Shown in pieces: positions 35,907-51,225 of a DNA stretch of 64,000 bases. Numbering within the stretch: the first letter of the stretch is position 1; the number at the start of each line of letters is the position of its first letter. Made by a program: the position numbers and the translations under genes. The DNA comes from Ferrovibrio sp. MS7 (GTDB lineage Bacteria > Pseudomonadota > Alphaproteobacteria > Ferrovibrionales > Ferrovibrionaceae): positions 682,001 through 746,000 of the forward strand of contig NZ_JBBKBA010000002.1 in assembly GCF_038404985.1 (NCBI RefSeq). Reading direction: 5' to 3'. Below the pieces are notes generated by a model. It made no database searches. It was not told where the DNA came from and worked only from the letters and a program-made list of their open reading frames with translations.

Positions 35907-37496
35907 TCAGAAAGCGGCAACGGCTCCGTCGCTGCGCGGATCGGTAGCGCCCTCCAGGGCACCATCCGGATGCCGCACGATGGCGCCGGCATGGCCCATG
36001 GTGGCGGTGAAATCCGCCATCATCTCCACGTCGTGGCCGGCACGGCTGAGATGCGCCACCAGATCGGGATCGAAGCGGCCTTCCAGCTTCAGCGTCACGC
36101 TGTTCTCGCCCCAGGTCTTGCCCAGCAGCCAGCGCGGCGCGGTGATCGCCTGCTGCAGCGGCTGGCCGAACAGGCCGTAGCGGCTGAACAGGGCGGATTG
36201 AGTCTGCGGCTGGCCCTCGCCGCCCATGGTGCCATAGACCATGTCGCGGCCATCCTTGAAGCGCGCCATCGCCGGATTGAGGGTGTGGAACGGGCGTCGG
36301 CCAGGCGCCAGCAGGCGCGGCCCCTTGCCGCTGAGCAGGAAGCTTGAGCCGCGATTCTGCCACACGATGCCGCTTTCCGGCAGCACGCAGCCGGAGCCGA
36401 ATTCGAAATAGATGCTCTGGATGAAACTGGCCTGGCGGCCCTCGCCATCAATGGCCCCCATCCACACCGTGTCACCGGGATTGACCGGATAGGGCCAGGG
36501 CAAAGCCTTTTCGCGGTCTATGCGCTGCACCAACTGGTCCAGCGCCTCCGGCGCAAGATAAGGCCCCGGCTGCTCCGGCATCGAATCCGGATCGCCGAGG
36601 ATGCGGTCGCGGATCAGGAAGGCCTGCTTGGTTGCCTCCACCAGGCCATGAATATGCGCGAAGCCTTCCGCCTCGCGCACATTCAGCCGGTCGAACAGGC
36701 CGAGGATCATCAGCGAAGCAAAACCCTGGGTCGGCGGCGCGAAATTGTAGAGCGTGGCATTCTTCAGCGCGACTGAAAGCGCCGCGGGCCGCCGCGCCTG
36801 ATGCACCGCCAAATCGCTCTGCGCCAGCGGCGTGCCAAAGCGGGCATGGTCGGCGGCCAGGCTCCTGGCCAATTCACCGCGATAGAAATCCTCGGTACCG
36901 GCCTGGCCGATGCGCTTCAATGTCGCGCCCAAGGCTGGCAGTTTCATGCGCTCGCCTTCGCGCGGCAGACAGCCATCGATCAGGAAAGCTTCCTTGAAGC
37001 CCGGCGCATCCTTCAGCTCAGGCCATTTCTGCTCGGTGAGTTCGGCCTGGCTCAGCGTGACAGCGAAGCCATTTTCGGCATGCCAGGCAGCCTCTTCCAC
37101 CAAACGGCTCAAGGGCAGCTTGCCGCCCCAGGCGACGGAAGTCTTCAGCACCTCGCCCCAGCCAGAAATGGTGCCGGCCACGGTATTGGCGGCAAGCGGC
37201 CCGCGCCACGGGATGCTTTCCAGGCCCTGGGCGCGATAAAGCGCCACATCGGCCTTGGCCACGGCCGCGCCGCAGCCCTCCACCGCTTCCGGCACCTGGC
37301 CCGGCTGCGCCACCAGCCAGAAGCCATCGCCACCGATGCTGGTCATATGCGGGTAGACCACGGCCAGCGCCGCCGCCATCGCCACCGTCGCCTCGATGGC
37401 ATTGCCGCCCTCGCGCAACACGGCGAGGCCGGCCTGGGAGGCCAGGTGATGCGGCGCGGTGACCATGCCGCGACGGGCGCGCGGGGTGTGGAGCAT
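35907..37496 (-). CDS. Gamma-glutamyltransferase-family amidohydrolase, HpxW-like
   Basis: 529 residues from ATG 37494-37496 (MLHTPRARRGMVTAPHHLAS). An Ntn-hydrolase proenzyme: the autocleavage Thr is about T343 in NPGDTVWMGAIDGEG, followed by SIYFEFGSG and the oxyanion loop MVYGTMGGEGQPQT. There is no signal peptide, unlike periplasmic GGT, which favours a cytosolic amidohydrolase such as HpxW (oxamate amidohydrolase). It sits in an operon with a TRAP importer, near AtzE/HpxY, DUF4089 and HpxZ homologues, which supports that reading. Oxamate hydrolysis to oxalate and ammonia is an inference. 10 bp after the TSUP permease. Confidence 0.85.
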   Translation of the reverse strand: MLHTPRARRGMVTAPHHLASQAGLAVLREGGNAIEATVAMAAALAVVYPHMTSIGGDGFWLVAQPGQVPEAVEGCGAAVAKADVALYRAQGLESIPWRGPLAANTVAGTISGWGEVLKTSVAWGGKLPLSRLVEEAAWHAENGFAVTLSQAELTEQKWPELKDAPGFKEAFLIDGCLPREGERMKLPALGATLKRIGQAGTEDFYRGELARSLAADHARFGTPLAQSDLAVHQARRPAALSVALKNATLYNFAPPTQGFASLMILGLFDRLNVREAEGFAHIHGLVEATKQAFLIRDRILGDPDSMPEQPGPYLAPEALDQLVQRIDREKALPWPYPVNPGDTVWMGAIDGEGRQASFIQSIYFEFGSGCVLPESGIVWQNRGSSFLLSGKGPRLLAPGRRPFHTLNPAMARFKDGRDMVYGTMGGEGQPQTQSALFSRYGLFGQPLQQAITAPRWLLGKTWGENSVTLKLEGRFDPDLVAHLSRAGHDVEMMADFTATMGHAGAIVRHPDGALEGATDPRSDGAVAAF

Positions 37497-37506
37497 AGCT
37501 AGGTCC

Positions 37507-38331
37507 TCAGGTGAGCAGGTCGTAGAACATGCGCAACGCCGTGAAGCCGAGGAAGACGGCGAAGACACGCTTGAGATTGCGGGTATTGAGACCATGCGCC
37601 AGCTTGGCGCCATAGGGTGCCAGCAAGGTCGAGGTCGGGAAGATCAGGGCGAAGCCGATCAGGCTGATATAGCCCAGGGAGAATGGCGGCAGGCCAGGCA
37701 CATTCCAGCCCGCCAGCACGAAACCGATGGCGCCGGGAATGCCGATGATGAAACCGATGGCAGCGGCAGTGCCCACCGCGCGGTGGATCGGATAACCGAA
37801 CAGCGACAGGATCGGCACGCTCAACGTGCCGCCACCAATGCCCATCATGGCCGAGATGGTGCCGATGGTACCGGCCAGCAGGGCTTTCGGCGCCCCCTTC
37901 GGCAGGCTTTCCGCAAGTCGCCATTCCGGCTTGGCGAAACCCATATGCAACGACACGACCAAAGCCACGGTGGCGAAAACGGCGCTGAGCACCGGGCCGC
38001 GCACATAGCTCGCCAGCGCGGTGCCACAGAGCACGCCAAAGAAAATCCACGGTCCCCAGCTTTTCAGCAGGGTGAAATCCACCGCGCCGCGCTTGTGATG
38101 CGACCGGACCGAGGAAACCGAGGTGGCGATGATCGAGGCCAGCGAGGTGCCGACCGCGACATGCATGCGCACATCCTCGTCGATGCCAAGGGCCGAGAAC
38201 AGGTGCCACAACACCGGCACGATGACGATACCGCCGCCAACCCCGAGCAGGCCGGCGGTGATGCCCGCCACCGCACCGGCGGCGAGCAGCAGCGCGCCAA
38301 ACAACAGAACCTGACTGAGATCGAGCGACAT
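37507..38331 (-). CDS. TauE/SafE (TSUP) family membrane transporter
   Basis: 274 residues with eight or so helices in two repeats. The repeat signature GITAGLLGVGGGIVIVPVL (first) and GMMGIGGGTLSVPIL-like ISAMMGIGGGTLSVPIL (second) is characteristic. The family exports sulfite, sulfoacetate and other small anions. No sulfonate-metabolism gene is visible, so the anion may be an end product of the operon (for example oxalate), which is only a guess. Lies 43 bp after dctM. Confidence 0.88.
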   Translation of the reverse strand: MSLDLSQVLLFGALLLAAGAVAGITAGLLGVGGGIVIVPVLWHLFSALGIDEDVRMHVAVGTSLASIIATSVSSVRSHHKRGAVDFTLLKSWGPWIFFGVLCGTALASYVRGPVLSAVFATVALVVSLHMGFAKPEWRLAESLPKGAPKALLAGTIGTISAMMGIGGGTLSVPILSLFGYPIHRAVGTAAAIGFIIGIPGAIGFVLAGWNVPGLPPFSLGYISLIGFALIFPTSTLLAPYGAKLAHGLNTRNLKRVFAVFLGFTALRMFYDLLT

Positions 38332-38374
38332 GACTTGGCCTCGCGGCGCCGGGGCCCTGCCTGACCGCCCCTGC

Positions 38375-39700
38375 CTACCAGCCGATGGCCTTGGGCAGCC
38401 AGGTGGCGATGGTGGGGTTGAAGAAGACGATGACCAGCGCGATCAATTGCAGCCCGATGAATGGGACCACGCCCTTGTAGATGTCAAGGGTCGTAACCTG
38501 CGGCGGAGCGACGCCACGCAGGTAGAACAGGGCCCAGCCGAAGGGTGGTGTCAGGAACGAAGTCTGCAGATTGAGGGCGATCAGGGTGGCTACCCAGACC
38601 AGATCGACATTCGCCGCCTGCAGGATCGGCAGGAATAGCGGTACGACAATGTAGCTGATCTCAATCCATTCGATGAAGAAGCCGAGGATAAAGATCAGGA
38701 ACATCATGAACCACAGCACGCCGGTGATGCCGCCGGGCACGATCTTGAAGAAATCATGCACCAGTTGCTCGCCTTGCAGACCACGGAAAGCCAGGGCGAA
38801 AACCTGGGCGCAGATCAGGATGAACATCATCGAGGCGGTGATGCGGCCGGTGGCATAGACCGTTTCCTTCAGCATCTGCCAGTTCAGGCGGCCGGAAATC
38901 GCCGCCACAAGGATGGAACCCAGCGCCCCCATGGAGGCGGCTTCCGTCGGCGCCGCAACGCCGGCGATGATGGAACCCAGCACCGCCAGCACCAGGGCGA
39001 TAGGCGGCAGGCCTACTTTGAGGGTCTTTTGCAGCAATTCCTGCCGGCTCATGGCGAAGCGTTCCTCGGCCGGAATCGGCGGCACCATTTCCGGCTTCAC
39101 CATGCCGAGTACCAGCAGGAAAATGCAGAAGATGCCAGACAGCATCAGGCCCGGGAACACGGCGGCGGCAAACAGTGTGCCGACCGACTGGCCGAGAATA
39201 TCGGCGAGCAGGATGATGATCGTGCTGGGCGGGATGATCTGGCCGAGCGTGCCCGAGGCGCAGATGGTGCCGCAGGCGATGGACTTGTTGTAGCCGCGCC
39301 GCAGCAATGTGGGCAACGTCAGCAGGCCCAGCGTGACGATGGTGGCACCGACAATGCCGGTAGTGGCGCCCATCAGTACGCCAACCAGCACGATGCCGAT
39401 GCCCATGCCGCCGCGCAAGCCGCCGGAGAGATGGCCGATCACCTCCATCAGGTCATTCGCGATCTTCGACTTCTCCAGCATCATGCCCATGAAGACGAAA
39501 AGCGGAATGGCGATCAGGGTATAATTGGCCGTTACCCCGAAGATGCGCGCCGGCAGCAGATTGAACAGCAACGCGCCGAAACCGAGATAGCCGAAAAAGA
39601 AACCGCTGATCGCCAGCGTCAGCGCAACCGGCACACCCACGGCTAACAACAGGAAAAACGAAACGATACAGGAAATAGCCAGGATTTCGTTAAGCGGCAT
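38375..39700 (-). CDS. TRAP transporter large permease DctM
   Basis: 441 residues from ATG 39698-39700 (MPLNEILAISCIVSF), twelve or so helices. Family sequences include GVPVALTLAISGFFFG, IPLFVFMGMMLEKS, TICASGTLGQIIPPSTIIILL and NLQTSFLTPPFGWALFYLRG near the end. The transport channel for Na+-driven uptake with DctP and DctQ. Overlaps dctQ by 11 bp. Confidence 0.94.
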   Translation of the reverse strand: MPLNEILAISCIVSFFLLLAVGVPVALTLAISGFFFGYLGFGALLFNLLPARIFGVTANYTLIAIPLFVFMGMMLEKSKIANDLMEVIGHLSGGLRGGMGIGIVLVGVLMGATTGIVGATIVTLGLLTLPTLLRRGYNKSIACGTICASGTLGQIIPPSTIIILLADILGQSVGTLFAAAVFPGLMLSGIFCIFLLVLGMVKPEMVPPIPAEERFAMSRQELLQKTLKVGLPPIALVLAVLGSIIAGVAAPTEAASMGALGSILVAAISGRLNWQMLKETVYATGRITASMMFILICAQVFALAFRGLQGEQLVHDFFKIVPGGITGVLWFMMFLIFILGFFIEWIEISYIVVPLFLPILQAANVDLVWVATLIALNLQTSFLTPPFGWALFYLRGVAPPQVTTLDIYKGVVPFIGLQLIALVIVFFNPTIATWLPKAIGW

Positions 39701-40244
39701 GTTCCAACTCTTGATCAGGCTTGTTCTGCGATGGTGGGCCGCCAAGCAAAGGGATCAGGGCGCGACAGGTGGCCGCCAGACTTTGCAGCAGCAGCAGCAC
39801 GAAACCGGCCGGGATCATCGCCTTGAGGATGAAGCGGTATGGCAGGCCACCGGGATCGGGCGATTTCTCGCCGATGCGGTAGGATTGCTCGACATAGCCG
39901 AAGCTCAGCTTGATGACGATGACGCAGAGCGCCACGGCGGCAAGGCAGGAGATGAATTCCACCACCTGCTGCATTTTCGGGGAGAAGCGGCCATAGAGAA
40001 TATCCACCCGGACATGACCTTCATGCTTGATCGCATAAGCCATGCAGAGCAGCGAGACCGGCGCCATCAGATGCCATTCAAGCTCCTGCATCGCCACGGA
40101 TCCGGTGCGGAAGCCGTAACGCAGCAGCACATTGAAGGCCATGACCAGGACCAGCGCAAAGCCGGTCCAGGATGCAAGCCGCCCGCAATGCTCGACAAGA
40201 AAATCGAGCTTGCGGGCGGCGGACTCCAGACGGGAGGCAGACAT
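39690..40244 (-). CDS. TRAP transporter small permease DctQ
   Basis: 184 residues from ATG 40242-40244. Four hydrophobic helices with the DctQ signature RYGFRTGSVAMQELEWHLM and EGHVRVDILYGRFS. The small subunit of the TRAP membrane complex. 8 bp after dctP. Confidence 0.92.
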   Translation of the reverse strand: MSASRLESAARKLDFLVEHCGRLASWTGFALVLVMAFNVLLRYGFRTGSVAMQELEWHLMAPVSLLCMAYAIKHEGHVRVDILYGRFSPKMQQVVEFISCLAAVALCVIVIKLSFGYVEQSYRIGEKSPDPGGLPYRFILKAMIPAGFVLLLLQSLAATCRALIPLLGGPPSQNKPDQELEHAA

Positions 40245-40252
40245 GGAGGAGA

Positions 40253-41374
40253 TTACGCCTTGCTCAACTGACCGCGAATCTGGCCCTGATAGACGGCTTC
40301 CGAGATGCCGGCCCACTTATCGTGGTTAGCCTTGAATGCCATGAAGGCATCGTGCACTTTCTTGATCGACGGGTCCTTGGCCGCGCCATCGTTCAGCACC
40401 GCTTCGGTCACTTCCTTCAGCTTGGCGACGATCGAGACCGGCAGCGGCTGCGCCGTGACGCCTTGGTTCTTCACCAGATCGTCCAGCGCCTCGGCATTGG
40501 TCGCCTCGCACCAAGTGTGGCTGATGGTATTGCAGGCGGCGGCGGCGACACGCACGATTTCCTGCAGGTCGGCCGGCAGTGACTCGAAGGCCTTCTTGTT
40601 GACAATCAGTTCGGTGACGTTGGACGGCTCGTGCCAGCCCGTGGTGTAGTAGTATTTCGCTGCCTTCTGCAGGCCGAGGCGGCGGTCCTGGTAGGGGCCG
40701 ACGAATTCGGCCGCGTCGATCACGCCACGTTCCAGTGCCGGGAAGATTTCGCCGCCAGGCAACAGCTTCACGTCGACGCCGAGCGCGGCATAGACCTTGC
40801 CCGCCAGGCCCGGGATGCGCATCTTCAGGCCCTTGTAGTCATCCACACTGGTCACCGGCTTGCGGTACCAGCCGGTCATCTGCACGCCGGTATTGCCCAT
40901 CGCCATCGGCACCAGATCGAACGGCGCGTAGAGTTCTTCCCACAGCTTCTGACCGCCACCATGGTAGATCCACGCGGTCTGGCCCTGGAAATTCAGGCCG
41001 AACGGCACCACGGTGAAATACTGTGCGGCAGGAATCTTGCCGGCCCAGAAGTAGCTGTTGGCGGCATTCATCTCCACCACACCCTTGGACACCGCATCGA
41101 AGCCCTCCAGCGCCGGGATCAGTTCGCCAGCGGCGAAATGCTGGATCGTCAGGCGGCCGCCCGACATCTTCTTGACCATTTCGCAGAAATCGGTGGGGCT
41201 GCCGGGGCCAGCGACATAGAAGGGCGAACCCGGACCGTAAGCGTTGGTCATCTTCCACTGGAAGGTCCGCGACTGCGCGGCAACAACATTGGGCATGGCG
41301 AAACCGCCGACAGCGGCGCCGGCCAGGCCGGCCTTGACGAGCGAACGGCGGTTGATCGAGGTCTTGCGGGTCAT
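40253..41374 (-). CDS. TRAP substrate-binding protein DctP, TakP-like (2-oxo acid type), Tat signal
   Basis: 373 residues from ATG 41372-41374 (MTRKTSINRRSLVKAG). A twin-arginine signal (NRRSLVKAG) is followed by a mature DctP fold. The sequence AAEFVGPYQDRRLGL with YYYTTGWHEPSN resembles the ligand site of TakP-like proteins that bind 2-oxo monocarboxylates such as pyruvate or lactate. If that holds, oxamate (an amide analogue of pyruvate) would be a natural ligand and fits the HpxW-like neighbour. An operator-like element lies 60 bp upstream. Confidence 0.9.
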   Translation of the reverse strand: MTRKTSINRRSLVKAGLAGAAVGGFAMPNVVAAQSRTFQWKMTNAYGPGSPFYVAGPGSPTDFCEMVKKMSGGRLTIQHFAAGELIPALEGFDAVSKGVVEMNAANSYFWAGKIPAAQYFTVVPFGLNFQGQTAWIYHGGGQKLWEELYAPFDLVPMAMGNTGVQMTGWYRKPVTSVDDYKGLKMRIPGLAGKVYAALGVDVKLLPGGEIFPALERGVIDAAEFVGPYQDRRLGLQKAAKYYYTTGWHEPSNVTELIVNKKAFESLPADLQEIVRVAAAACNTISHTWCEATNAEALDDLVKNQGVTAQPLPVSIVAKLKEVTEAVLNDGAAKDPSIKKVHDAFMAFKANHDKWAGISEAVYQGQIRGQLSKA

Positions 41375-41602: not shown

Positions 41603-41995
41603 TCAGGTTTTCGGGGCGTCGAGCAGGCTGACATGGGCGGAAATCACCCGCCAGCCCTCGGGCGTGCGCATCCAGGTCTGGCTCTGACGGCCAGTCTTGG
41701 TGCTGTTCGCCCGCTGGAATTCGGTATTGGCCGTGGCGAAGTCGCGGCCATAGGTGGTGATCACCGTATTATAGATCGTACGCTCCAGGCCCGCTGATGG
41801 ACGCGAAGAACGGAAAGCGGCAATGGCCGCGTAGCCATGCAGGTTCTCGGTGACGCCATAGCGCAACGTATGCGGGCTGTTCCAGAACAGTTCGTCCAGC
41901 ACTGCCACATCGTTGCCGGTCAGCGCCTTTTCGTAGCGGGCGAACTGCGCCTGCACTTCCGCCAGCACCTCGGGGATATTGATTTCCAGGCTCAT
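41603..41995 (-). CDS. DUF3225 protein, AtzH/HpxZ-like
   Basis: 130 residues from ATG 41993-41995 ([22 protein letters not shown]), overlapping the amidase stop by 4 bp. A SnoaL/NTF2-like cone fold is suggested by the pattern [41 protein letters not shown] and [24 protein letters not shown]. The family includes HpxZ of oxalurate utilisation and AtzH of cyanuric-acid degradation in Pseudomonas, where it acts on dicarboxyurea-type intermediates. The role here is inferred from context. Confidence 0.88.
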
Positions 41996-43377
41996 GCCAC
42001 CCTCGACGAAGCAATACCGATCTTTTCCAGTTGCCGCGCCACGCGCAGGGCCAGGTCCTCGCGCCAGGGCGCCGCGATCACCTGCACGCCGATCGGCAGC
42101 GGCCGGGCATCGGCATAGGGCGTCGCCACCACCGGCAGGCCGGCAAAGGAAATCGGCTGCGTGAAGATGCCGAGATTGGCCCGTACCGGCATCTCGACAC
42201 CCGCGATTGTCATCATCTTCTGGCCCAGCAAAGGCGCCGAACAAGGCGTCGCCGGCGCCAGCAGCACATCCACGTCCTTGAACATTTCCAAGAGCCGCGC
42301 ACGATACCAGCGACGGAAACGCTGCGCCTGCACATACCAGTCGCCGGGCAGCATCAGGCCGGCGAAGAAGCGGTCGCGTGTATCGGGGTCGAAATCCTGC
42401 GGTCGCTCGCGCAGGCGCTGGCGATGCAGGTTGGCGCCTTCATGGGCGGTGATGACATAGGCCGCCGAGCGACCGCGCTTGGCTTCCGGCACCGTGACGC
42501 GCCGCGTCACGCCCAGCGCCTTGGCGAAGGCTTCCACCGCCGCATGGGCATAGGGCTCGCCACCGCTGGCGAAATAATCATCGGCCACGGCGATGCGCAG
42601 GCCATCGATGCCCTTATCCAGTTCCGGGAAGGCCGGCTCAATGGCACGCTGGGCGCAGGCCGGATCCTCGGCATCCGGCCCCTGCATGGCATCGTAGCTC
42701 AGGGCCAGGTCGGCGGTGCTGCGTGCCAGGGGCCCGAGATGATCAATGCTGGCAACGAACATGAAGCTGCCATGGCGCGACAGCCGGCCAAAGGTCGGCT
42801 TGAGGCCAAACAGGCCGCACAGCGAGGAGGGCACACGGATCGAGCCATTGGTATCGGAGCCGAGGCTTACCGGCACCATGCCGGCAGCCACCGCCGTGCC
42901 CGAACCGCCGGACGAGCCACCCGACATACGGTTCGGGTCATGCGGATTGCGCGAGGGCCCGTAATGGCTGTTCTCGCCGGTGAAATCATAGGCGTATTCG
43001 CCCATGTTGAGGCCACCGACCAGCACCGCGCCGGCGGCTTCCATGCGGCGCACCAGGGTGCCGTCCTGCTTGGCCGGGGCATGGTCGCGGTTGATCTTGG
43101 AACCGGCCAGCGTCGGCAGCCCGGCGATATCGAACAGGTTCTTGACGCCAAAAGGCACACCGGCGAGCGGGCCGAGCACCTCGCCGCGCACCTTCGCCGC
43201 ATCCACGGCCTTGGCCTTGGCGCGGGCGCGTTCAGCCGTGATGTCGATGAAGCCGTTAAGCTGCGGATTGGTGGCCCTGATACGGGCGAGCGATACTTCC
43301 ACCGCTTCCGCCGCACTGACCTTGCCGGTGGAGACGGCAGCGGCGATTTCAGCAGCCGTGCTGGTATGGTCGATCAT
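41992..43377 (-). CDS. AtzE/HpxY-family amidase
   Basis: 461 residues of the amidase-signature family. The Ser-cisSer-Lys triad is present: Lys in [15 protein letters not shown], cis-Ser in [17 protein letters not shown] and the nucleophile Ser in [20 protein letters not shown]. AtzE hydrolyses 1-carboxybiuret and needs the small partner AtzG; HpxY is the counterpart in oxalurate clusters. The AtzG-like gene overlaps its start by 4 bp. The C-terminal region ends [12 protein letters not shown]-like. Substrate unknown here because atzD is absent. Confidence 0.9.
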
Positions 43378-43556
43378 GGCACATAGGTCGCCGCCGGCTC
43401 GACATCGTCGGGCAGCGGAAAATCGAGATAAACCTTGGCGATGGCCGCTGAGCGCTTGAGGTTATCGATCACGCCCGGGCGATAGGCCGGATCGAGTTCC
43501 AGGCCGGTCAGCGCCAGAGCCTGATCGAGATAAGCTTCCGCATCGAATTCAGCCAT
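43374..43556 (-). CDS. DUF4089 protein, AtzG/HpxX-like amidase partner
   Basis: 60 residues. The pattern MAEFDAEAYLDQAL, LELDPAYRPGVIDNLKR, AAIAKVYLDFPLPDD-type ending is the DUF4089/AtzG signature, a GatC-like small subunit that wraps and stabilises AtzE. It overlaps the AtzE-like gene by 4 bp and starts 5 bp after the ABC ATPase, so stoichiometric production through coupling is likely. Confidence 0.9.
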   Translation of the reverse strand: MAEFDAEAYLDQALALTGLELDPAYRPGVIDNLKRSAAIAKVYLDFPLPDDVEPAATYVP

Positions 43557-43561: not shown

Positions 43562-44602
43562 TTACGCTACCTCACGCATCAAATCCGGGTCTGGCGTTGC
43601 CTTGTGGCAGGCGGCCTGATGGCCCGCCGCCATGGCACGCAATTCTGGCATGGTGGTTTCGCAAGCGCTATCGCCTTTCGGGCAGCGGCCATAAAAGCGG
43701 CAGACATTCGGCGACGGATCAATCGGGCTGCGCGGCTCGCCGCCCAGCCGCACCCGCTGCGTCTCCACCCCGGGATCGAAATGCGGGATCGCCGAAAGCA
43801 AGGCCTTGGTATAGGGATGGCGCGGATTGCGGAACACCGATTCCGCCGGCCCGATTTCCACGATCTTGCCGAGATACATCACCATGACGCGGTCGCAGAG
43901 CAGCCGCACCACATTGAGGTCGTGGCTGACGAACAGATAGCTCATGCCGAGCTTCTGCTTCAGGGTCTCGAGCAATTGCAGGATCACCACCTGCACCGAC
44001 ACGTCGAGTGCCGCCGTCGGCTCATCCAGGATCAGCAATTCCGGGTCCACGGCGATGGCGCGGGCAATGCCGACGCGCGCCTTCTGGCCGCCGGAAAGCT
44101 GATGCGGGAAGCGGCTGAGCAAGGCTACAGGCAAGCCGCAGAGCTCGGCCAGTTCCTCGACGCGCGGCTTCAGCTTATCCTTGGGCATGGGCTTCAGGCG
44201 ATGGATCGGATCGGCGATGGCATCGAAGGCGGTGTAACGTGGATTAAGGCTGTCGGTGGCATCCTGAAACACCATCTGCACGCGCGGCCGATAGGGGCTG
44301 GAGCCGAAACCCTTGGCCGGCATATGGCCGATTTCCTCGCCGTTCAGCCGGATGCTGCCATCGCTGGGGTCGAGCAGGCGAGTGATCAGGCGGACCAAAG
44401 TCGACTTGCCGCAGCCGGACTCGCCAACCAGGCCCATCGTTTCGCCGCGCGCGACCTGGAAGCTGACATTATCCACTGCATGCAGCTTGGCCACCGGCTT
44501 GTCGGCGCCGCGGGCACGGGCAAACAGGCCAGGCTTCTGCCCGACCGGAAACAGCTTGTAAAGCGAGGCGATATCGAGCAGGGGAGCGGGGGCGTCGGTC
44601 AT
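43562..44602 (-). CDS. Oligopeptide/dipeptide-type ABC ATPase (DppF-like)
   Basis: 346 residues from ATG 44600-44602 (MTDAPAPLLDIASLYKLF). Walker A GLVGESGCGKSTLVRLI, Q-loop MVFQDATDSLNPRYTAFD, signature HQLSGGQKARVGIARAI, Walker B LLILDEPTAALDVS, H-loop LFVSHDLNVV and the C-terminal oligo_HPY region with Cys motif VCRFYGRCPKGDSACE. The second ATPase of a Dpp-type importer; overlaps DppD-like by 4 bp. Confidence 0.94.
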   Translation of the reverse strand: MTDAPAPLLDIASLYKLFPVGQKPGLFARARGADKPVAKLHAVDNVSFQVARGETMGLVGESGCGKSTLVRLITRLLDPSDGSIRLNGEEIGHMPAKGFGSSPYRPRVQMVFQDATDSLNPRYTAFDAIADPIHRLKPMPKDKLKPRVEELAELCGLPVALLSRFPHQLSGGQKARVGIARAIAVDPELLILDEPTAALDVSVQVVILQLLETLKQKLGMSYLFVSHDLNVVRLLCDRVMVMYLGKIVEIGPAESVFRNPRHPYTKALLSAIPHFDPGVETQRVRLGGEPRSPIDPSPNVCRFYGRCPKGDSACETTMPELRAMAAGHQAACHKATPDPDLMREVA

Positions 44603-45567
44603 AGCGGATTCCAGCAGGCAACGAGGCCGCCATCGCCGCGCTGCTGCTTGGGCAGCGAACGCTCGCAATTGGCCAGCTTGCGTTCGCAACGCAGGCTGTA
44701 GCGGCAGGGCGGAATGCTTTCGGCGCGCAGATCGGGCAGCGAGCCGGGAATCGAGGCCAGGCTTGCCAGCGAGGCGGTGGGGCGCGGCGTGGCGGCGATC
44801 AGCTTGGCCGTGTAGGGATGGCGTGGATTGCGGAACAGTTCCACCGTCGGTGCGCTTTCCACCACATGGCCGGCATGCATCACCACGATGCGGTCGCAGT
44901 ATTCCGCCGCCATGCCGAGATCATGGGTGATCAGCACGGTCGCCATGCCCTGGGCCTGGCCGAGTTCCTGCACCAGATCCATGATCACCGCCTGGGTGGT
45001 CACATCCAGGCCGGTGGTCGGTTCGTCGGCGATCAGCAGCTTCGGCTGGCAGGCGAGCGCAATGGCGATCATGATGCGCTGGCACATGCCGCCGGAAAGC
45101 TCGAAAGGATAGGCCTTGGCGCGGCGTTCCGGATCGGGGATGCGCACTTTCTGCAACATATCGATGGCGCGTTTCGGTGCCTCGGCATGGGTGACGCCGC
45201 CATGCTCGATCAGCACATCGGCAATCTGCTGCCCCACCCGGCGGATCGGGTTCAGTGCCACGCGCGGATTCTGGAAGATCATCGACATCTCGCGGCCGCG
45301 CAATTCGCGCAGCGCACCCTCGCTGGCTTGCAGCAGGTCGAGACCACCGAACACTGCACTGCCGGTAGTGACCTTGCCGGCGGGATCGAGAATGCCCATC
45401 ACGGTATAGGCCGTCACCGACTTGCCCGAACCGGACTCGCCGACAATCGCCACCATCTCGCCCTTGTGAATATCGAAATCGACACGGTCGAGCGCTTTCA
45501 CGATGCCTGAGCGGGTGCGGAAATCGACACTGAGGTCGGTAACGGAGAGCAGAGGAACGGCTGTCAT
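44599..45567 (-). CDS. Oligopeptide/dipeptide-type ABC ATPase (DppD-like)
   Basis: 322 residues from ATG 45565-45567 (MTAVPLLSVTDLSVDF), which has GAGG upstream; a GTG at 45603 directly after the DppC stop is an alternative. Walker A VAIVGESGSGKSVTAYTV, signature FELSGGMCQRIMIAIAL, Walker B LLIADEPTTGLDVTTQ, H-loop VLITHDLGMAAEY and a C-terminal Cys-rich oligo_HPY tail (CRYSLRCERKLANCE). Confidence 0.93.
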   Translation of the reverse strand: MTAVPLLSVTDLSVDFRTRSGIVKALDRVDFDIHKGEMVAIVGESGSGKSVTAYTVMGILDPAGKVTTGSAVFGGLDLLQASEGALRELRGREMSMIFQNPRVALNPIRRVGQQIADVLIEHGGVTHAEAPKRAIDMLQKVRIPDPERRAKAYPFELSGGMCQRIMIAIALACQPKLLIADEPTTGLDVTTQAVIMDLVQELGQAQGMATVLITHDLGMAAEYCDRIVVMHAGHVVESAPTVELFRNPRHPYTAKLIAATPRPTASLASLASIPGSLPDLRAESIPPCRYSLRCERKLANCERSLPKQQRGDGGLVACWNPL

Positions 45568-45603
45568 GGCTACGTTCGCCTCAGCATTTTCTGGTCGGCG
45601 CAC

Positions 45604-46449
45604 TCATGTGCGCCTCCGGGGATCGACAATATCGCGCAGACCATCGCCGAGCAGGTTGAAGCAGAACACCGCCAGCATCAGGGCAAGGCCTGGAAACAGC
45701 GCCACCCACCATTCGCCGGAGATGATGAACTGCGCCCCTTCCGCCACCAGGATGCCCCATTCCGGCGTCGGCGGCGCGATGCCGAGGCCGATGAAGCTCA
45801 GGCCCGCCGCATTCAGGATGGCATAGCCCATGGTGAGCGAGCATTGCACCATCAGGATCGGCAGGATGTTGGGCAGGATATGCATGAACAGGATGCGGCC
45901 TTCCGAATTGCCGGAAAGCCGCGCCGCCTCGATGAAGCCGGCATTGCGCCGCACATTGGCTTCGGCGCGGGCGACACGGGCATAGAGCGGCATATTGATG
46001 ATCGCGGTGGCGATCACGATATTGCCCACCGTGTTGCCCAGAGCCGCGACGATGCCCATGGCCAGCACGAAGAGCGGGAAGGCCATGATGGTATCGCCGA
46101 TGCGCCCGACGATGCGGTCTGGCCAGCCACCGAAATAGCCCGCCGCGATGCCGGCAATGGCGCCGATGCCGAAGGTGAGGATCACGGCGGCGAAAGCGAT
46201 GGTGAGATCAAGCCTTGTCGCCACCAGCACGCGGCTGAAAATATCGCGGCCCAAAGCATCGGTGCCGAACCAGAATTGCGCCGAGGGCGGCTTCAGCGCC
46301 CGGCTGGCATCGGTGGCCAGCGGGTCATAGGGCGCCAGCAGCGGCCCGAAGATGGCCGCGAAGAGCAGCAGGAAAAACAGGCTGAAGGCGAACAGCGTCA
46401 CCGGGTTTTCGGTGATCACGTAACGAATATGCTTCAGCGTGGCGTTCAT
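45604..46449 (-). CDS. Oligopeptide/dipeptide-type ABC permease (DppC-like)
   Basis: 281 residues, six helices. N-terminal OppC_N segment NPVTLFAFSLFFLLLFAAIFG, HPFGTD-like FWFGTDALGRDIFSRVL, EAA loop AARLSGNSEGRILFMHILPN and C-terminal PRRRT. Permease subunit of the Dpp-type importer. 13 bp after the DppB-like gene. Confidence 0.94.
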   Translation of the reverse strand: MNATLKHIRYVITENPVTLFAFSLFFLLLFAAIFGPLLAPYDPLATDASRALKPPSAQFWFGTDALGRDIFSRVLVATRLDLTIAFAAVILTFGIGAIAGIAAGYFGGWPDRIVGRIGDTIMAFPLFVLAMGIVAALGNTVGNIVIATAIINMPLYARVARAEANVRRNAGFIEAARLSGNSEGRILFMHILPNILPILMVQCSLTMGYAILNAAGLSFIGLGIAPPTPEWGILVAEGAQFIISGEWWVALFPGLALMLAVFCFNLLGDGLRDIVDPRRRT

Positions 46450-46462
46450 GATTCAAAGCCCC

Positions 46463-47476
46463 TCATGATTCGAAACCGACGCGCGGGTCGATCACGATGT
46501 AGAGGATGTCGATCAGCAGGTTCAGTGCCACATAGAGCATCGCCATGGTGAGCACGAAGCCCTGGATCGGGGCGTAATCGGAAGCGATCAGTGCCTCGAT
46601 GGCAAACGTGCCGATGCCGGGCCAGGAGAACACCTTCTCCACCAGCACATTGGCACCGAGCAGAAAGGAGAACACCATGCCCAGCGTGGTAATCACCGGC
46701 AGCATGGCGTTGCGGAAGGCATAGCCGTAGATCACCTTGGTTTTCGACAGGCCGCTGGCCCGTGCGGTGCGGATGAAATCGCTGCTCAGCACTTCCAGCA
46801 TCGAGGCGCGCGTCATGCGCGCCAGCGGTGCCAGGGTAAAGAAGGCCAGCGTGAAGGCCGGCAGCGCCAACTGCTTCAGCGCCGAGACGAAGGTTTCGCC
46901 ATCGCGCGCCAGCAGGCTGTCGACCAGATACAGGCCAGTGACATGCGGCGGCGTGGAGGCATAAATATCGAGCCGGCCAAGTGGTGCCGGCGCCCAGCCG
47001 AGCAGATAGTAAAGCACATAGATCAGCAGTAGGCCGCTGAAGAAGGCCGGCAGACTGACGCCCGCCGTGGTGATGACTCGGCAGCTATGGTCGATCCATG
47101 ACCCTGGCCGTGTTGCCGCCGCGATGCCGAGCGGCACCGCGATGCCGACAGAAACGATCAGGCCGATCAAGGTCAGTTCAAGCGATGCCGGCAGGCGCGT
47201 GGCGATCTCCTCCACCACCGGGCGACCGGTGGCAATGGAGTTGCCAAGATTGCCGCGTACCAGATCCTTCACATAGACCACGAACTGCTCGGGCAGGCTC
47301 TTGTCCAACCCGAGCGCCTTGCGGATCTGTTCGATGGCCTCCTGGCTGGCGGCGGGCCCGGCGAAATACACCGCCGGGTCGCCGGGCAAGGCGCGGGTGA
47401 GCAGGAAGGTGACGATCAGCACCCCGATGATGCTCGGGATGGCACTCACCAACCTTTTGCTGATCAGCCGCAGCAT
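46463..47476 (-). CDS. Oligopeptide/dipeptide-type ABC permease (DppB-like)
   Basis: 337 residues, six helices. Hallmarks are the N-terminal LISKRLVSAIPSIIGVLIVTF, GDPAVYFAG, LPEQFVVYVKDLVRGNLGNS and the EAA loop TARASGLSKTKVIYGYAFRN. Partner of the DppC-like permease. 14 bp after dppA-like. Confidence 0.94.
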   Translation of the reverse strand: MLRLISKRLVSAIPSIIGVLIVTFLLTRALPGDPAVYFAGPAASQEAIEQIRKALGLDKSLPEQFVVYVKDLVRGNLGNSIATGRPVVEEIATRLPASLELTLIGLIVSVGIAVPLGIAAATRPGSWIDHSCRVITTAGVSLPAFFSGLLLIYVLYYLLGWAPAPLGRLDIYASTPPHVTGLYLVDSLLARDGETFVSALKQLALPAFTLAFFTLAPLARMTRASMLEVLSSDFIRTARASGLSKTKVIYGYAFRNAMLPVITTLGMVFSFLLGANVLVEKVFSWPGIGTFAIEALIASDYAPIQGFVLTMAMLYVALNLLIDILYIVIDPRVGFES

Positions 47477-47490
47477 GGGTCAGCCGGTTC

Positions 47491-49107
47491 TCAGAGCTTT
47501 TCGAGCTGGCGGAAATCGAGCTGGCGGTGGAACCAGTAGGTATAGCCCTTGATGTTCTTCTGCATGCCGACATCAAGGATCTGCTGGTACATCGGCACGC
47601 GCGGCACTTCATCAATCGCCATCTTGATAAAGCCCTTCACCTGCTCGGCATACTTGGCCGGGTCTTCCTCATAGCGCGAGGCATCGATCAGGGCGTCCAT
47701 CGCCTTGTTCTGGTAGGACATGGTGTTGAACACCGCGTTCTGGCCATGGTAGCCCCAGAAGAAGAAGTAATCCGGGAAGTTCAGCCAGCCGCCAAAGCTG
47801 GCGATATGCAGCGGCCGGTTCTTCTGCAGCATGGCATTGCGGAAATTGGCGCCCGGGATCTTCTCGATGGTGGTCTTGATGCCGATCTGCGCCAGCGACT
47901 GCTGCAGCAGCACGGCTTCCGGTTCCGAAGCCGTGGCATCGCCAAGATCGATGGAGATGGTGGTCTCGAAACCATCAGGATAACCGGCCTCGGTCAAGAG
48001 CTGCTTGGCTTTGACAAGATCGGTCTTGTAGGGGAAAGGCTGCGGCCAGACCGCATCCTTGGGCGCATCGGCCGGACCGCCGGACATCGGAATGCCGCGG
48101 CCATAGATGGCAGTCTTGTAGATCTGCTCGAACGGCGTGGCATAGGCAATGGCCTGACGCACCTTCGGATTATCGAAGGGCTTCATGGTGGAGACCATGC
48201 CGACATATTTCAGCGAATTCTCCACCGGCACGCCGACAACCTTGTACTTGCCGGCTTCACCGAGCGCGAGCAGTTCGGCGGAATCCTTCTGCGGCATATC
48301 CACCGAGATATCGGCGTCGCCGCGTTCCATCAGGGCGCGGCGGTTGCCGGCCTGCGGCACCTCGCGCAGGATGACGCGCTGAATCTTGGGCAGCGGGCCA
48401 TTCTTCCAGTCGTCGTTGCGCACCAGGATGGTTTCCTGGCCCGGCGTCCACTTTTCCAGCTTATAGGCGCCGCCGCCGGCACCATTGGTCTTCATCCAGT
48501 CCATCGCCCACGGATCCTTCTCCGTGGCGTTCTTCTTGGCCAGCTTGGAATTGTAGATCGCAGGCACCACCACGGCCATGTCGGGCAGAGCCAGCTTGTC
48601 GCGCTTCGGCAGGTCGACGCGGAAGGTGTAGTCGTCCACCACCACGAACTGCTCCGGCTTGGTCAGCGAGCCGGCGGCCATCTGGAAGGTGGGGAAGCCA
48701 CCGACAGAGACGGCACGGTCGTAGGACCACTTCACGTCATGCGCCGTCACCGGCTCGCCGTCGTGGAATTTCGCGTTGCGGCGGATCTTGAAGGTGAAGC
48801 TCTTGCCGTCCGGCGAGACCGTGTAGCTCTCGGCCAGTTCCGGCACGATCTTGCTGTAATCGTACATCTGCGTGCCATCCGGCAACGTCTTGATGCCGAA
48901 GGAGACAAGGCGGTCATACATGTTCCACGCCGCTACATAGGAGCGGAAGCTGGTGCCGACGCCGTGGATGTCCATGCTGTTCGGGCCGTTCTCCACCAGC
49001 ACCAGCAAAGTATCCTTGCGGCCCTGGGCCTCGGCCGGTGCGGCAGCGCCCAGCAGCGATAAAGCGGAAAGTATCGTAGTGGCTACGAGAAAGGCACGGC
49101 GGCGCAT
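47491..49107 (-). CDS. Dpp-type periplasmic substrate-binding protein
   Basis: 538 residues from ATG 49105-49107 (MRRRAFLVATTILSALSLL), with GGAG 7 bases upstream. Signal peptide then a SBP_bac_5 fold: YDRLVSFGIKTLPDG, ELAESYTVSPDGKSFTFKIR, NAKFHDGEPVTAHDVKWSYD, NGAGGGAYKLEKWTPGQE and DNPKVRQAIAYATP. The family carries peptides but also opines, glutathione and other amides. First gene of an eight-gene operon that ends with the AtzH-like gene, so the ligand is probably the amide processed by the amidase. Confidence 0.92.
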   Translation of the reverse strand: MRRRAFLVATTILSALSLLGAAAPAEAQGRKDTLLVLVENGPNSMDIHGVGTSFRSYVAAWNMYDRLVSFGIKTLPDGTQMYDYSKIVPELAESYTVSPDGKSFTFKIRRNAKFHDGEPVTAHDVKWSYDRAVSVGGFPTFQMAAGSLTKPEQFVVVDDYTFRVDLPKRDKLALPDMAVVVPAIYNSKLAKKNATEKDPWAMDWMKTNGAGGGAYKLEKWTPGQETILVRNDDWKNGPLPKIQRVILREVPQAGNRRALMERGDADISVDMPQKDSAELLALGEAGKYKVVGVPVENSLKYVGMVSTMKPFDNPKVRQAIAYATPFEQIYKTAIYGRGIPMSGGPADAPKDAVWPQPFPYKTDLVKAKQLLTEAGYPDGFETTISIDLGDATASEPEAVLLQQSLAQIGIKTTIEKIPGANFRNAMLQKNRPLHIASFGGWLNFPDYFFFWGYHGQNAVFNTMSYQNKAMDALIDASRYEEDPAKYAEQVKGFIKMAIDEVPRVPMYQQILDVGMQKNIKGYTYWFHRQLDFRQLEKL

Positions 49108-49180
49108 GGCAGTCTCCAGTTCGGGTCCGATGCCTATTGCACTGCAACGGGCGTGCCATGGTGACGGCCCGTTTATGCGA

Positions 49181-49192
49181 ATTGTATGCACG
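49181..49192. promoter_or_regulatory. Operator-like half site on the dppA side
   Basis: ATTGTATGCACG contains the octamer TGTATGCA found in the dctP operator. It lies about 75 bases upstream of the dppA-like start. Confidence 0.45.
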
Positions 49193-49268
49193 TTGCTGAA
49201 ATGGCTAGGAGAATCACCACTCACCACCACCAGACGGTGCAGAGGTTGCAGCTTTGCGCAGAAACTGG

Positions 49269-49302
49269 ATTGCCTATTTAATATCCATACACTAGAGGCA
49301 AT
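49269..49302. repeat. Inverted repeat ATTGCCT-N20-AGGCAAT
   Basis: Perfect 7-bp arms at 49269-49275 and 49296-49302 around a 20-base AT-rich spacer in the middle of the divergent promoter region. Could be a second transcription-factor site. Confidence 0.4.
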
Positions 49303-49381
49303 ATGACTAAGTGCGCGGCAGCAGGATCGAGAAAAGTCGCATAATTTCAAGGCAATCGTGCAGTTATGGGCCGGTATGACA

Positions 49382-49393
49382 GTTGCATACAAC
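49382..49393. promoter_or_regulatory. Operator-like site in front of atzF
   Basis: GTTGCATACAAC has GTTG/CAAC arms around CATA and contains TGCATACA, the reverse complement of TGTATGCA. It lies 30 bases before the atzF start, where it could overlap the transcription start. Confidence 0.5.
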
Positions 49394-49422: not shown

Positions 49423-51225
49423 ATGACTCTGCCCAGCCTTAGCATTGCCACCCTGCAGGCAGCCTATGCAGCAGGCGAAACCAGCCCTTCCAAACTGGTC
49501 GCCGCCATTGCCGAGGCGATAGCGGCCCGGGGCCAGGATGCGGTCTGGCTCAGCCTCACCCCGCCCGAAGCCCTGCTCAAGCGCGCCGCCGCACTGGAGG
49601 CCGCCGGCCCGGCGGGCAAGCCGCTTTACGGCATCCCTTTCGCGGTGAAGGACAATATCGACGTCGCCGGCCTGCCGACCACGGCGGCCTGCCCGGCTTT
49701 CGCCTATACCCCGTCGCAATCCGCGACGGCGGTGGCAAAGCTGGAAGCCGCCGGCGCCATCGTCATCGGCAAGACCAATCTGGACCAGTTCGCCACCGGC
49801 CTGGTTGGCGTGCGCTCGCCTTATGGTGTGGCGGTGAACCCGTTCAACAAGGAGTATGTGCCGGGCGGTTCGTCCTCGGGCTCGGCTGTGGCGGTGAGCG
49901 CCGGCCTGGTCAGCTTCTCGCTCGGCACCGATACCGCCGGCTCCGGCCGCGTGCCGGCCGGCTTCAACAACATCGTCGGCCTCAAGCCCTCCATCGGCCT
50001 GATCAGTTCCAGCGGCATGCTGCCGGCCTGCCGTTCGCTGGATTGCATTTCGGTTTTCGCCCTTACGGTCGCCGATGCCATGGCGGTGCTGGAAGCGGCG
50101 CGCGGCCTGGATGCGGCTGATGCCTATTCACGCAGCGCGCCGGCGGGTTTCCGCTCCACCGTGCCGCCCTGCCCGGCCAAGTTCCGTTTCGCCGTGCCTG
50201 ACAAACCGCAATTCTTTGGCGATGCCGAGGCCGAAAAGCTGTTCCATGCCGCCGTGGCGCGCTTTGAGACCATGGGCGGCGAGAAGCAGGTGATTGACTA
50301 CGCGCCCTTCGCCGAAGCACAGGCGATGCTCTATTCGCCGCCTGGCGCTGCCGAACGGGTGACGGCGTTGCATGATTTCTTCCGCGATCATGCGGATGCT
50401 TTCCATCCGGTGACGCGCGGCATCCTGGAGAGTGGCCAATCCGCCAGCGCGGTCGATCTCTACCGCATGCAGCAGCGGCTGCGAGCCTTGAAGCAGCAGA
50501 TCGACCCGATCTGGGGCGAGGTTGATTTCATGCTGGTGCCGACCAGCGGCACGATCTACCGCGTCGCCGAAATCCTGGCCGAGCCGCTGAAGCTCAACGC
50601 CAATCTCGGCTACTACACGAATTTCGTGAATTACTTCGATCTCAGCGCCCTTGCCGTGCCGAATGCGATGCGCGCCGATGGCCTGCCGAGTGGCGTGACG
50701 CTGATCGCCCCGGCCTTCTTCGAGGCCAAACTCGCCGGCTTCGGCGCCGCCTTCCATGCCAAGGCCAAGCTGCCGCTCGGCGCCACCGGCCATGCCCTGC
50801 CGGAAACGGCGGCAACGGCAGCACCGCCCTCGCCCAGCATCCGCATCGCGGTGTTCGGCGCCCATATGCAGGGCCAGCCGCTGAACCACGAAATCCTTGG
50901 CCTTGGCGGCCGCTATGTCGCCGAGATCAAGACCGCGCCGATCTACAAGCTCTACCGCATCGATGCCGGCGGCCCGCCGCGCCCCGGCGTGCTGCGCGTG
51001 GCAGAAAGCGGCGTGGCATTGGCCGGCGAAATCTGGGATCTGCCCACGGCGGGTTTCGGCGCCTTTGTCGCCGGCATCCCGGCACCACTCGGCATCGGCA
51101 CGGTGACACTGGCTGATGGCACCACGGTGAAAGGCTTCCTCTGCGAGGCGGCAGCGACGGTAGGCGCGGAAGACATTTCGCGCTTCGCCGACTGGCGCGC
51201 CTACCGCGCCTGGCTGGCGAAATAG
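49423..51225 (+). CDS. atzF: Allophanate hydrolase AtzF
   Basis: 600 residues from ATG 49423 (MTLPSLSIATLQAAYAAG) with GGAG upstream. The N-terminal amidase domain (about 1-450) has Lys in GIPFAVKDNIDVAGLPT, cis-Ser in GGSSSGSAVAVSAG and Ser in GTDTAGSGRVPAGFNNI. The C-terminal domain (about 465-600, IRIAVFGAHMQGQPLNHE ... GEIWDLPTAGFGAFVA) is the AtzF/DUR1-type domain that finishes breakdown. The family converts allophanate to CO2 and ammonia. Divergent from the dpp-atz operon. No urea carboxylase or biuret hydrolase lies next to it, so the allophanate should come from the amidase operon or elsewhere. Confidence 0.94.
   Translation: MTLPSLSIATLQAAYAAGETSPSKLVAAIAEAIAARGQDAVWLSLTPPEALLKRAAALEAAGPAGKPLYGIPFAVKDNIDVAGLPTTAACPAFAYTPSQSATAVAKLEAAGAIVIGKTNLDQFATGLVGVRSPYGVAVNPFNKEYVPGGSSSGSAVAVSAGLVSFSLGTDTAGSGRVPAGFNNIVGLKPSIGLISSSGMLPACRSLDCISVFALTVADAMAVLEAARGLDAADAYSRSAPAGFRSTVPPCPAKFRFAVPDKPQFFGDAEAEKLFHAAVARFETMGGEKQVIDYAPFAEAQAMLYSPPGAAERVTALHDFFRDHADAFHPVTRGILESGQSASAVDLYRMQQRLRALKQQIDPIWGEVDFMLVPTSGTIYRVAEILAEPLKLNANLGYYTNFVNYFDLSALAVPNAMRADGLPSGVTLIAPAFFEAKLAGFGAAFHAKAKLPLGATGHALPETAATAAPPSPSIRIAVFGAHMQGQPLNHEILGLGGRYVAEIKTAPIYKLYRIDAGGPPRPGVLRVAESGVALAGEIWDLPTAGFGAFVAGIPAPLGIGTVTLADGTTVKGFLCEAAATVGAEDISRFADWRAYRAWLAK

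What the first reader, a model, noticed from the sequence alone, without database searches (positions are those of the whole stretch)
35907..41374. TakP-like TRAP transporter plus HpxW-like hydrolase: possible oxamate uptake and use
The DctP protein resembles binders of 2-oxo monocarboxylates (EFVGPYQDRRLGL, YYYTTGWHEPSN). Oxamate is a close structural analogue of pyruvate and the HpxW family is associated with oxamate hydrolysis to oxalate and ammonia. Both lie in one operon with a TSUP anion permease that could export the leftover acid.
Basis: inference. Interest (0 to 1): 0.6.

Follow-up and report, generated by a model that had tools for sequence, protein, structure and literature searches.

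The report
Probable oxamate-scavenging transporter and hydrolase operon
A bacterium carries an operon that probably imports oxamate, a waste product of purine breakdown, splits off its ammonia as a nitrogen source and pumps the leftover oxalate out; no importer for oxamate turned up in the literature searched.

Summary
At 41374-35907 (minus strand) lies a tight operon dctP-dctQ-dctM-TSUP-hpxW in a Ferrovibrio genome. HpxW's best solved relative is 5hft (55.5%; recalled as Klebsiella oxamate amidohydrolase); it shares 5hft's pocket residues and lacks those of gamma-glutamyltransferase. DctP is TakP-like: cation and carboxylate ligands kept, but the hydrophobic tail pocket is polar (Asn106, Asn252, Thr254) in 23 of 23 close orthologues; neither Asn occurs in 28 distant TakP-like receptors. 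Of the 80 best HpxW loci, 20 have dctPQM directly upstream, 14 others a relative of the oxalate/formate antiporter OxlT within 2.5 kb, 6 a TSUP (2 of them with the TRAP). Oxalurate is thus a rival ligand, but 6 of 15 TRAP-HpxW genomes outside Ferrovibrio (two of them isolates) have no HpxZ match. Best reading: oxamate uptake, cytoplasmic hydrolysis to NH3 + oxalate, oxalate export. Ligand and activity are inferred, not shown. Each part belongs to a known family; the TRAP-HpxW system and re-tooled receptor are, within my searches, undescribed.

The parts
40253..41374 (-). dctP: TakP-like TRAP substrate-binding protein, proposed oxamate receptor
   Evidence: PF03480 182 bits; PDB relatives incl. 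TakP 2hzk; head-group ligands Q165, R186, E223, E249 kept, tail pocket Y46/N106/N252/T254
39690..40244 (-). dctQ: TRAP small permease
   Evidence: PF04290 79.8 bits
38375..39700 (-). dctM: TRAP large permease
   Evidence: PF06808 260 bits; TIGR00786 over cut-off
37507..38331 (-). TSUP (TauE/SafE) permease, proposed oxalate exporter
   Evidence: PF01925 164 bits; TSUP next to HpxW in 6 of 80 loci and in plasmid pSC52_1
35907..37496 (-). hpxW: Ntn-type (GGT-superfamily) oxamate amidohydrolase, nucleophile Thr343
   Evidence: 5hft chains A and B best PDB hits; pocket residues as 5hft, not as E. coli GGT; below the GGT equivalog cut-off, 302.5 vs 357.85 bits
41515..41560 (-). terminator-like hairpin between hpxZ and dctP
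   Evidence: -23.1 kcal/mol, z -4.56, 0 of 200 shuffles as stable, stem ending in a U run; the consensus scan did not list it
41603..41995 (-). hpxZ / atzH-like
   Evidence: NF033625 HpxZ 209 vs cut-off 135; PF11533 AtzH-like 199; start read
41992..43377 (-). hpxY / atzE-like amidase
   Evidence: NF006631 AtzE family 730 vs 461
43374..43556 (-). hpxX / atzG-like small subunit
   Evidence: PF13318 AtzG-like 63.9 vs 24; NF033624 HpxX only 25 vs 70
43562..49107 (-). dppABCDF-type ABC importer (substrate unknown), travels with hpxXYZ
   Evidence: Pfam on the two ATPases; NCBIfam hits of the SBP, none over cut-off; the two permeases named by reading only; order conserved in the genus
49423..51225 (+). 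atzF allophanate hydrolase, divergent
   Evidence: TIGR02713 759 vs 511
51239..51982 (-). GntR-type regulator next to atzF
   Evidence: GntR-family NCBIfam matches, none over cut-off; orthologues beside atzF in five fetched genus loci, L026, L027, L029, L030, L038

Best explanation
dctPQM-TSUP-hpxW is an oxamate scavenging unit. DctP captures oxamate in the periplasm as a cation complex: Arg186 holds the carboxylate, the cation held by Gln165, Glu223 and Glu249 holds the 2-oxo group, and the polar tail pocket (Asn106, Asn252, Thr254) takes the amide. DctQM imports it with an ion gradient. HpxW, after self-cleavage before Thr343, hydrolyses it to oxalate and ammonia; ammonia is assimilated and the TSUP protein expels oxalate. 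In this genome the unit sits next to hpxXYZ, so an oxalurate branch could feed the same enzyme. Shown: gene order, families, residues, conserved linkage. Inferred: ligand, reaction, direction of the TSUP.
For: HpxW nearest to 5hft; pocket Y363, R382, H404-T405 as in 5hft. A Klebsiella HpxW is reported to release oxalate and ammonium from oxamate (passage of PMC5270733). dctPQM directly upstream of hpxW in 20 of 80 HpxW loci; 7 of 8 Ferrovibrio genomes with the DctP orthologue have hpxW beside it. A DctP-only plasmid search gave 94 records, 2 at 60% identity or more, both with a GGT-superfamily gene adjacent, one of them HpxW followed by a TauE/SafE permease. For SC52 the DctP is next but two to hpxW (dctQ and dctM lie between). 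Asn at both pocket sites in 23 of 23 close DctPs, at neither site in 28 below 50% identity. OxlT relatives within 2.5 kb of HpxW in 14 of 80 loci, none of these a TRAP locus; three of the 14 tested against TIGR04259, all over cut-off. No HpxZ match in 6 of 15 TRAP-HpxW genomes. E. coli turned 19.5 mM allantoin into 17.7 mM oxamate, which 'is no longer metabolized' (passages of PMC11326118).
Against: No ligand or activity data. That 5hft is the characterised HpxW is recalled; the PDB listing calls it gamma-glutamyltranspeptidase. Tyr100 of TakP, which H-bonds the carboxylate, is Phe109 here. 60 of 80 HpxW loci have no TRAP upstream, and HpxW also sits beside amidohydrolase, TctC, SBP_bac_5 or Peripla_BP_6 genes. 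Of the 20 TRAP loci 9 are Ancylobacter and 5 Ferrovibrio, so they are not independent. HpxZ is present in 9 of 15 TRAP-HpxW genomes, and the polar pocket also fits oxalurate. In G009 the DctP orthologue is not next to hpxW; in G010 hpxW has no DctP orthologue. Four TRAP receptors at 65-66% identity share the first Asn, yet their genomes show no HpxW at E 1e-150. In Skermanella the related DctP sits beside a GGT-family protein only 31% identical to HpxW. SC52 HpxW has Phe for Tyr363 and Thioclava HpxW Thr for His404.
Confidence: 0.62

Rival explanations
1. The TRAP system imports oxalurate. HpxXY deaminates its terminal ureido group, HpxZ decarboxylates the product to oxamate (by analogy with AtzEG/AtzH), and HpxW finishes the job.
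For: hpxXYZ directly upstream here and in G006 and G007; AllG absent from 18 of 18 genomes of the order, so no oxamate transcarbamylase of that kind; HpxZ in 9 of 15 other TRAP-HpxW genomes; polar pocket fits a ureido tail; AtzEG/AtzH chemistry described for cyanuric acid (PMC6219798, passages, section 14).
Against: hpxZ (40% identity or more) or hpxY (60% or more) within the fetched flanks in only 3 of the 20 TRAP-HpxW loci; a terminator-like hairpin separates the units here; no HpxZ match in 6 of 15 TRAP-HpxW genomes, two of them isolates. AllFGH was not tested in those genomes. AtzD in three Ferrovibrio genomes suggests that hpxXYZ may serve another, carboxybiuret-like substrate.
Confidence: 0.2
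2. An ordinary pyruvate/2-oxo acid TRAP uptake system; its neighbourhood with HpxW reflects carbon use or chance.
For: DctP is homologous to TakP and to 7ug8 'Ketoacid-binding protein' and keeps the cation and carboxylate ligands.
Against: Linkage to HpxW in 20 of 80 loci over several orders; the hydrophobic tail pocket that the TakP paper links to aliphatic tails (PMC1839085, passages) is replaced in 23 of 23 close orthologues.
Confidence: 0.1
3. HpxW here is a true gamma-glutamyltransferase or another amidase, and the TRAP brings a different amide or 2-oxo compound.
For: GGT superfamily; plasmid records often annotate relatives as gamma-glutamyltransferase; Skermanella pairs a similar DctP with a more distant GGT-family protein.
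Against: Below the GGT equivalog cut-off; GGT residues N411, Q430, D433 and S462-S463 are replaced as in 5hft, apart from Ser385 where 5hft has Ala; OxlT relatives accompany HpxW in 14 of 80 loci.
Confidence: 0.08

Closest known systems
TakP (Rhodobacter sphaeroides, PDB 2hzk/2hzl), TRAP receptor for 2-oxo acids
   Same: Family and the Gln, Arg, Glu, Glu cation/carboxylate ligands (paper passages)
   Different: Tyr100 is Phe; tail-pocket residues F40, V97, P243, V245 are Tyr, Asn, Asn, Thr; operon partner is HpxW
HpxW oxamate amidohydrolase of Klebsiella (PDB 5hft; this identification is recalled)
   Same: 55.5% identity over 521 positions, Thr at the processing site, same pocket signature but for Ser385/Ala
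   Different: Here encoded with a TRAP transporter and TSUP rather than in one operon with hpxX, Y and Z (operon: PMC3560190, passages)
atzG-atzE-atzH / hpxXYZ clusters (Esquirol et al. 2018, PMC6219798)
   Same: atzG-E-H order; 'ggt' beside it in Enterobacteriaceae; allophanate hydrolase plus ABC variant in beta-proteobacteria (section 14 read)
   Different: Here both types are joined and a TRAP-TSUP unit stands between hpxZ and hpxW; that section discusses ggt as a glutathione enzyme
OxlT oxalate/formate antiporter (TIGR04259)
   Same: A relative lies within 2.5 kb of HpxW in 14 of 80 loci; tested members over cut-off
   Different: A different transporter family from TSUP; analogue of role only, by inference

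Membership tests
TakP-type 2-oxo acid TRAP receptors | Gln156, Arg177, Glu214, Glu240 (TakP numbering) binding cation and carboxylate | tested here: met
   Q165, R186, E223, E249 in the window; 23 of 23 close orthologues
TakP-type 2-oxo acid TRAP receptors | Tyr100 H-bond to the carboxylate | tested here: not met
   Phe109 in the window; F in 21 of 23, Y in 2 of 23
TakP-type 2-oxo acid TRAP receptors | Hydrophobic tail pocket (F40, V97, P243, V245) | tested here: not met
   Y, N, N, T in 23 of 23 close orthologues
TakP-type 2-oxo acid TRAP receptors | Binds 2-oxo monocarboxylates; helix-swapped dimer | not testable with these tools
   Needs protein; my AlphaFold model is too poor, mean pLDDT 66.1
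HpxW oxamate amidohydrolase | Closest solved relative 5hft, processing site before Thr, same pocket residues | tested here: met
HpxW oxamate amidohydrolase | Hydrolyses oxamate to oxalate and ammonia | not testable with these tools
   Activity of the Klebsiella enzyme taken from a citing passage; primary paper not held
gamma-glutamyltransferase (TIGR00066) | Score over the equivalog cut-off | tested here: not met
   302.5 vs 357.85 bits
gamma-glutamyltransferase (TIGR00066) | Glutamate-binding residues R114, N411, Q430, D433, S462-S463 (E. coli numbering, recalled) | tested here: not met
   C75 (read from the alignment), Y363, R382, S385, H404-T405
hpxWXYZ oxalurate cluster | HpxZ equivalog NF033625 | tested here: met
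   209 vs 135 bits
hpxWXYZ oxalurate cluster | HpxX equivalog NF033624 | tested here: not met
   25 vs 70 bits; Pfam AtzG-like met instead
hpxWXYZ oxalurate cluster | W, X, Y and Z contiguous | tested here: not met
   TRAP and TSUP genes and a hairpin lie between Z and W; the units lie apart in G008, G011, G012, G013
TSUP (TauE/SafE) exporters | PF01925 domain | tested here: met
   164 vs 32.6 bits
TSUP (TauE/SafE) exporters | Transports oxalate outward | not testable with these tools
   inferred from neighbourhood only

The most novel reading that the evidence does not exclude
A dedicated high-affinity oxamate importer: a TRAP system whose keto-acid receptor was re-tooled by Asn and Thr in the tail pocket, paired with HpxW and an oxalate exporter (TSUP, with OxlT as its non-homologous stand-in beside HpxW in other loci). 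It would let alphaproteobacteria live off oxamate released by anaerobic allantoin degraders.
Probability: 0.55. Interest if true: 0.65.

Novelty: new variant of a known kind. Interest (0 to 1): 0.52.

Why it matters
Oxamate is the dead end of anaerobic allantoin use in E. coli (PMC11326118, passages). I found no account of who takes it up and how: two library searches found no paper on an oxamate transporter. If true, this closes a purine nitrogen cross-feeding loop, gives a ligand to a TRAP subfamily, suggests a role for a TSUP protein, and offers a receptor for an oxamate sensor. It would also help to stop HpxW being annotated as gamma-glutamyltransferase, a confusion already noted in print (PMC3560190, passages).

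Tried and rejected
The AlphaFold model of DctP (11 sequences) has mean pLDDT 66.1, and two segments at or next to the proposed site (205-223, 246-253) are below 50; it was not used. The promoter/terminator consensus scan gave nothing above chance: 10 terminator-like sites against a mean of 9.6, 0 promoters against 3.0; the hairpin is argued from folding alone. A GntR-type operator upstream of dctP was sought; the window and L102/L103 share a TGCA...TGTATGCA repeat, which I did not see in the other loci printed, so no claim is made. Oxalyl-CoA decarboxylase: 18 of 18 genomes gave matches, 0 over the cut-off; I read these as other ThDP enzymes. Urea carboxylase and AllB allantoinase: matches in the own genome, none over cut-off. 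AtzD: 4 of 18 genomes, not the own one. Neighbours of the related 57-66% TRAP receptors gave no ligand clue. A TSUP-oxalate literature search gave nothing useful (listing only). I considered oxalurate as the main ligand and ranked it second because.
Full report
What is there. The window lies in a 4.58 Mb, 5-contig genome. Contigs of its genus-mates match named Ferrovibrio records in length and place, so I read it as Ferrovibrio. On the minus strand from 41374 to 35907 run dctP, dctQ, dctM, a TauE/SafE (TSUP) gene and a GGT-superfamily gene, with gaps of at most ~45 nt or overlaps. Directly upstream are atzG-, atzE- and atzH-like genes, that is hpxX, hpxY and hpxZ (HpxZ 209 vs cut-off 135 bits, AtzE family 730 vs 461, HpxX only 25 vs 70), then a dpp-type ABC importer, a divergent allophanate hydrolase and a GntR-type gene. 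So counterparts of all four Hpx genes are present, not only HpxW. Between hpxZ and dctP a hairpin ending in a U run folds at -23.1 kcal/mol, z -4.56, which suggests two transcription units; the simple consensus scan did not list it.

The enzyme. The best solved relatives are both chains of 5hft, 55.5% identical over 521 aligned positions. The PDB listing calls 5hft gamma-glutamyltranspeptidase; that it is the Klebsiella HpxW of Hicks and Ealick 2016 is recalled. A citing paper says that HpxW releases oxalate and ammonium from oxamate (passage of PMC5270733); the primary paper is not held. The window protein has Thr343 at the processing site and the 5hft-like residues Y363, R382 and H404-T405, where E. 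coli GGT has N411, Q430 and S462-S463; D433 is S385 (A in 5hft), and R114 aligns with C75. The GGT residue numbers are recalled. The score is under the GGT equivalog cut-off.

The receptor. TakP holds pyruvate through Arg177, Tyr100 and a cation ligated by Gln156, Glu214, Glu240 and the carbonyl of Trp215; its tail pocket is hydrophobic, and its authors expect polar compounds to bind poorly (passages of PMC1839085). In the window DctP the Arg, Gln and both Glu are kept; Tyr100 is Phe109; tail residues F40, V97, P243 and V245 are Tyr46, Asn106, Asn252 and Thr254. As a control I took the DctPs that tblastn (E 1e-20) found in the loci held; matches under 250 residues and identical sequences were dropped, leaving 57. 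Asn at both V97 and P243 occurs in 23 of 23 at 72% identity or more; among 28 below 50%, 0 have Asn at either site; among 6 at 50-71%, 4 have Asn at V97 and all 6 have Thr at P243. These sequences are related, so the counts are not independent. SC52 DctP has the same pocket; Skermanella DctP has both Asn but Gly at V245.

Conserved linkage. Within the genus, 8 of 10 genomes have the DctP orthologue (87-100%) and 9 of 10 HpxW at 73% or more. In 7 of the 8 DctP genomes hpxW follows the TRAP genes; in G009 it does not. In G010 there is no DctP orthologue and the order is hpxXYZ-TSUP-hpxW. In G008, G011, G012 and G013 the TRAP-hpxW unit lies apart from hpxXYZ. In 20 of 80 dctPQM lies directly upstream on the same strand: 5 Ferrovibrio-type loci, 9 Ancylobacter, 4 other Rhizobiales (one a Rhizobium) and two similar MAGs named Magnetospirillum and Rhodospirillaceae, these last two with TSUP in between as in the window. 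68 of 80 loci have at least 4 kb upstream. hpxZ at 40% or hpxY at 60% identity or more lies within the fetched flanks in 3 of 80; weaker amidase matches of hpxY (39-46%) in 7 Azospirillum-type loci were not counted. An OxlT relative lies within 2.5 kb in 14 of 80, in two of these on the opposite strand, and a TSUP next to HpxW in 6 of 80, 2 of these with the TRAP. Three of the 14 and one from a Paraburkholderia plasmid were tested against TIGR04259; all four pass its cut-off. That plasmid is annotated GntR-hpxW-oxlT. Other neighbours are amidohydrolase, TctC, SBP_bac_5 and Peripla_BP_6 genes. DctP and HpxW pairwise identities among 21 linked pairs (the window, SC52 and 19 of the 20 loci; L103, whose hpxW reads as two pieces, was left out) correlate (rho 0.88, descriptive only).

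Independent look from the transporter side. A plasmid search with DctP alone found 94 records, 2 of them at 60% or more. One, Rhodobacteraceae SC52, reads dctPQM-hpxW-TauE/SafE. The other, Skermanella, has a GGT-family gene only 31% identical to HpxW. Thioclava pairs HpxW with a different TRAP. In a class-wide sample of 385 genomes 9 had DctP at E 1e-130 and 33 had HpxW at E 1e-150. Of the 6 DctP genomes outside the genus (receptors 57-66% identical), 2 have HpxW: G320, with hpxW tail-to-tail to the TRAP genes, and G349, elsewhere in the genome; one of the four without, G143, is only 74% complete.

Oxamate or oxalurate. HpxZ was sought in the 15 TRAP-HpxW genomes outside Ferrovibrio: 9 have it and 6 do not. 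The six are four MAGs (L129, L142, L148, L155), which may be incomplete, and two isolates, Ancylobacter moscoviensis (L157) and Rhizobium halophytocola (L176). A TRAP-HpxW pair that works without HpxXYZ points to HpxW's own substrate, oxamate. AllFGH was not tested there. In Ferrovibrio's order AllG is absent from 18 of 18 genomes. The own genome has no AllB allantoinase or urea carboxylase over cut-off and no oxalyl-CoA decarboxylase over cut-off, which fits uptake of pathway ends from outside and export of oxalate; other routes were not tested. By AtzEG/AtzH analogy (PMC6219798, section 14) HpxXYZ could deaminate and decarboxylate oxalurate to oxamate; this is inference, and AtzD in three Ferrovibrio genomes leaves room for a carboxybiuret-like substrate.

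Source of oxamate. E. coli grown anaerobically on allantoin turned 19.5 mM allantoin into 17.7 mM oxamate; culture supernatants were analysed and the authors state that oxamate is not metabolised further (passages of PMC11326118).

Novelty. Library searches for oxamate with TRAP transporter (one paper, where the two terms concern separate genes, passages) and for oxamate transport, uptake, utilization, degradation or catabolism (one paper, on a fly lactate/pyruvate transporter, listing only) found no oxamate importer. The library lacks most subscription journals. [quoted passage not shown] its main text does not mention TRAP, and its supplements were not read. All parts belong to known families; the combination and the pocket change are what is new.

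Noticed in passing
window 31258-32277 and 32308-33330: Two tandem paralogous substrate-binding proteins beside a permease (29015-31240) and an ATPase (33344-34417) that look like an iron(III)-type ABC importer (from reading the ORFs; no family search run).
   Followed up: no
window 35252-35884: A KDPG/4-hydroxy-2-oxoglutarate aldolase-like gene follows hpxW, then a glutathione S-transferase-like gene (34599-35207); the aldolase also follows hpxW in G006, G008 and G010, and a 42-47% relative lies downstream of hpxW on the opposite strand in six Afipia/Hyphomicrobiales loci. These names are from sequence reading.
   Followed up: partly
window 43562-51225: Allophanate hydrolase and the dpp-type ABC importer travel with hpxXYZ in 8 of the 9 genus genomes that have hpxZ, the window's included (in the ninth, G008, the contig ends within dppF), although AtzD and a urea carboxylase over cut-off are not found in the own genome; the source of allophanate is unexplained. 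AtzD is present in G011, G012 and G013.
   Followed up: partly
L098:8304-13796: In G009 hpxW sits between an allantoate amidohydrolase-type M20 gene and a cytosine deaminase-like amidohydrolase with a GntR gene nearby.
   Followed up: partly
L184-L187: TRAP receptors 65-66% identical to the window DctP with Asn at the V97 site but Thr at the P243 site, in genomes without HpxW at E 1e-150; perhaps for a different polar 2-oxo acid.
   Followed up: partly
L202:5098-9593: A Thioclava plasmid pairs HpxW with a different, poorly alignable TRAP receptor and a longer large permease, a second TRAP-HpxW association.
   Followed up: partly
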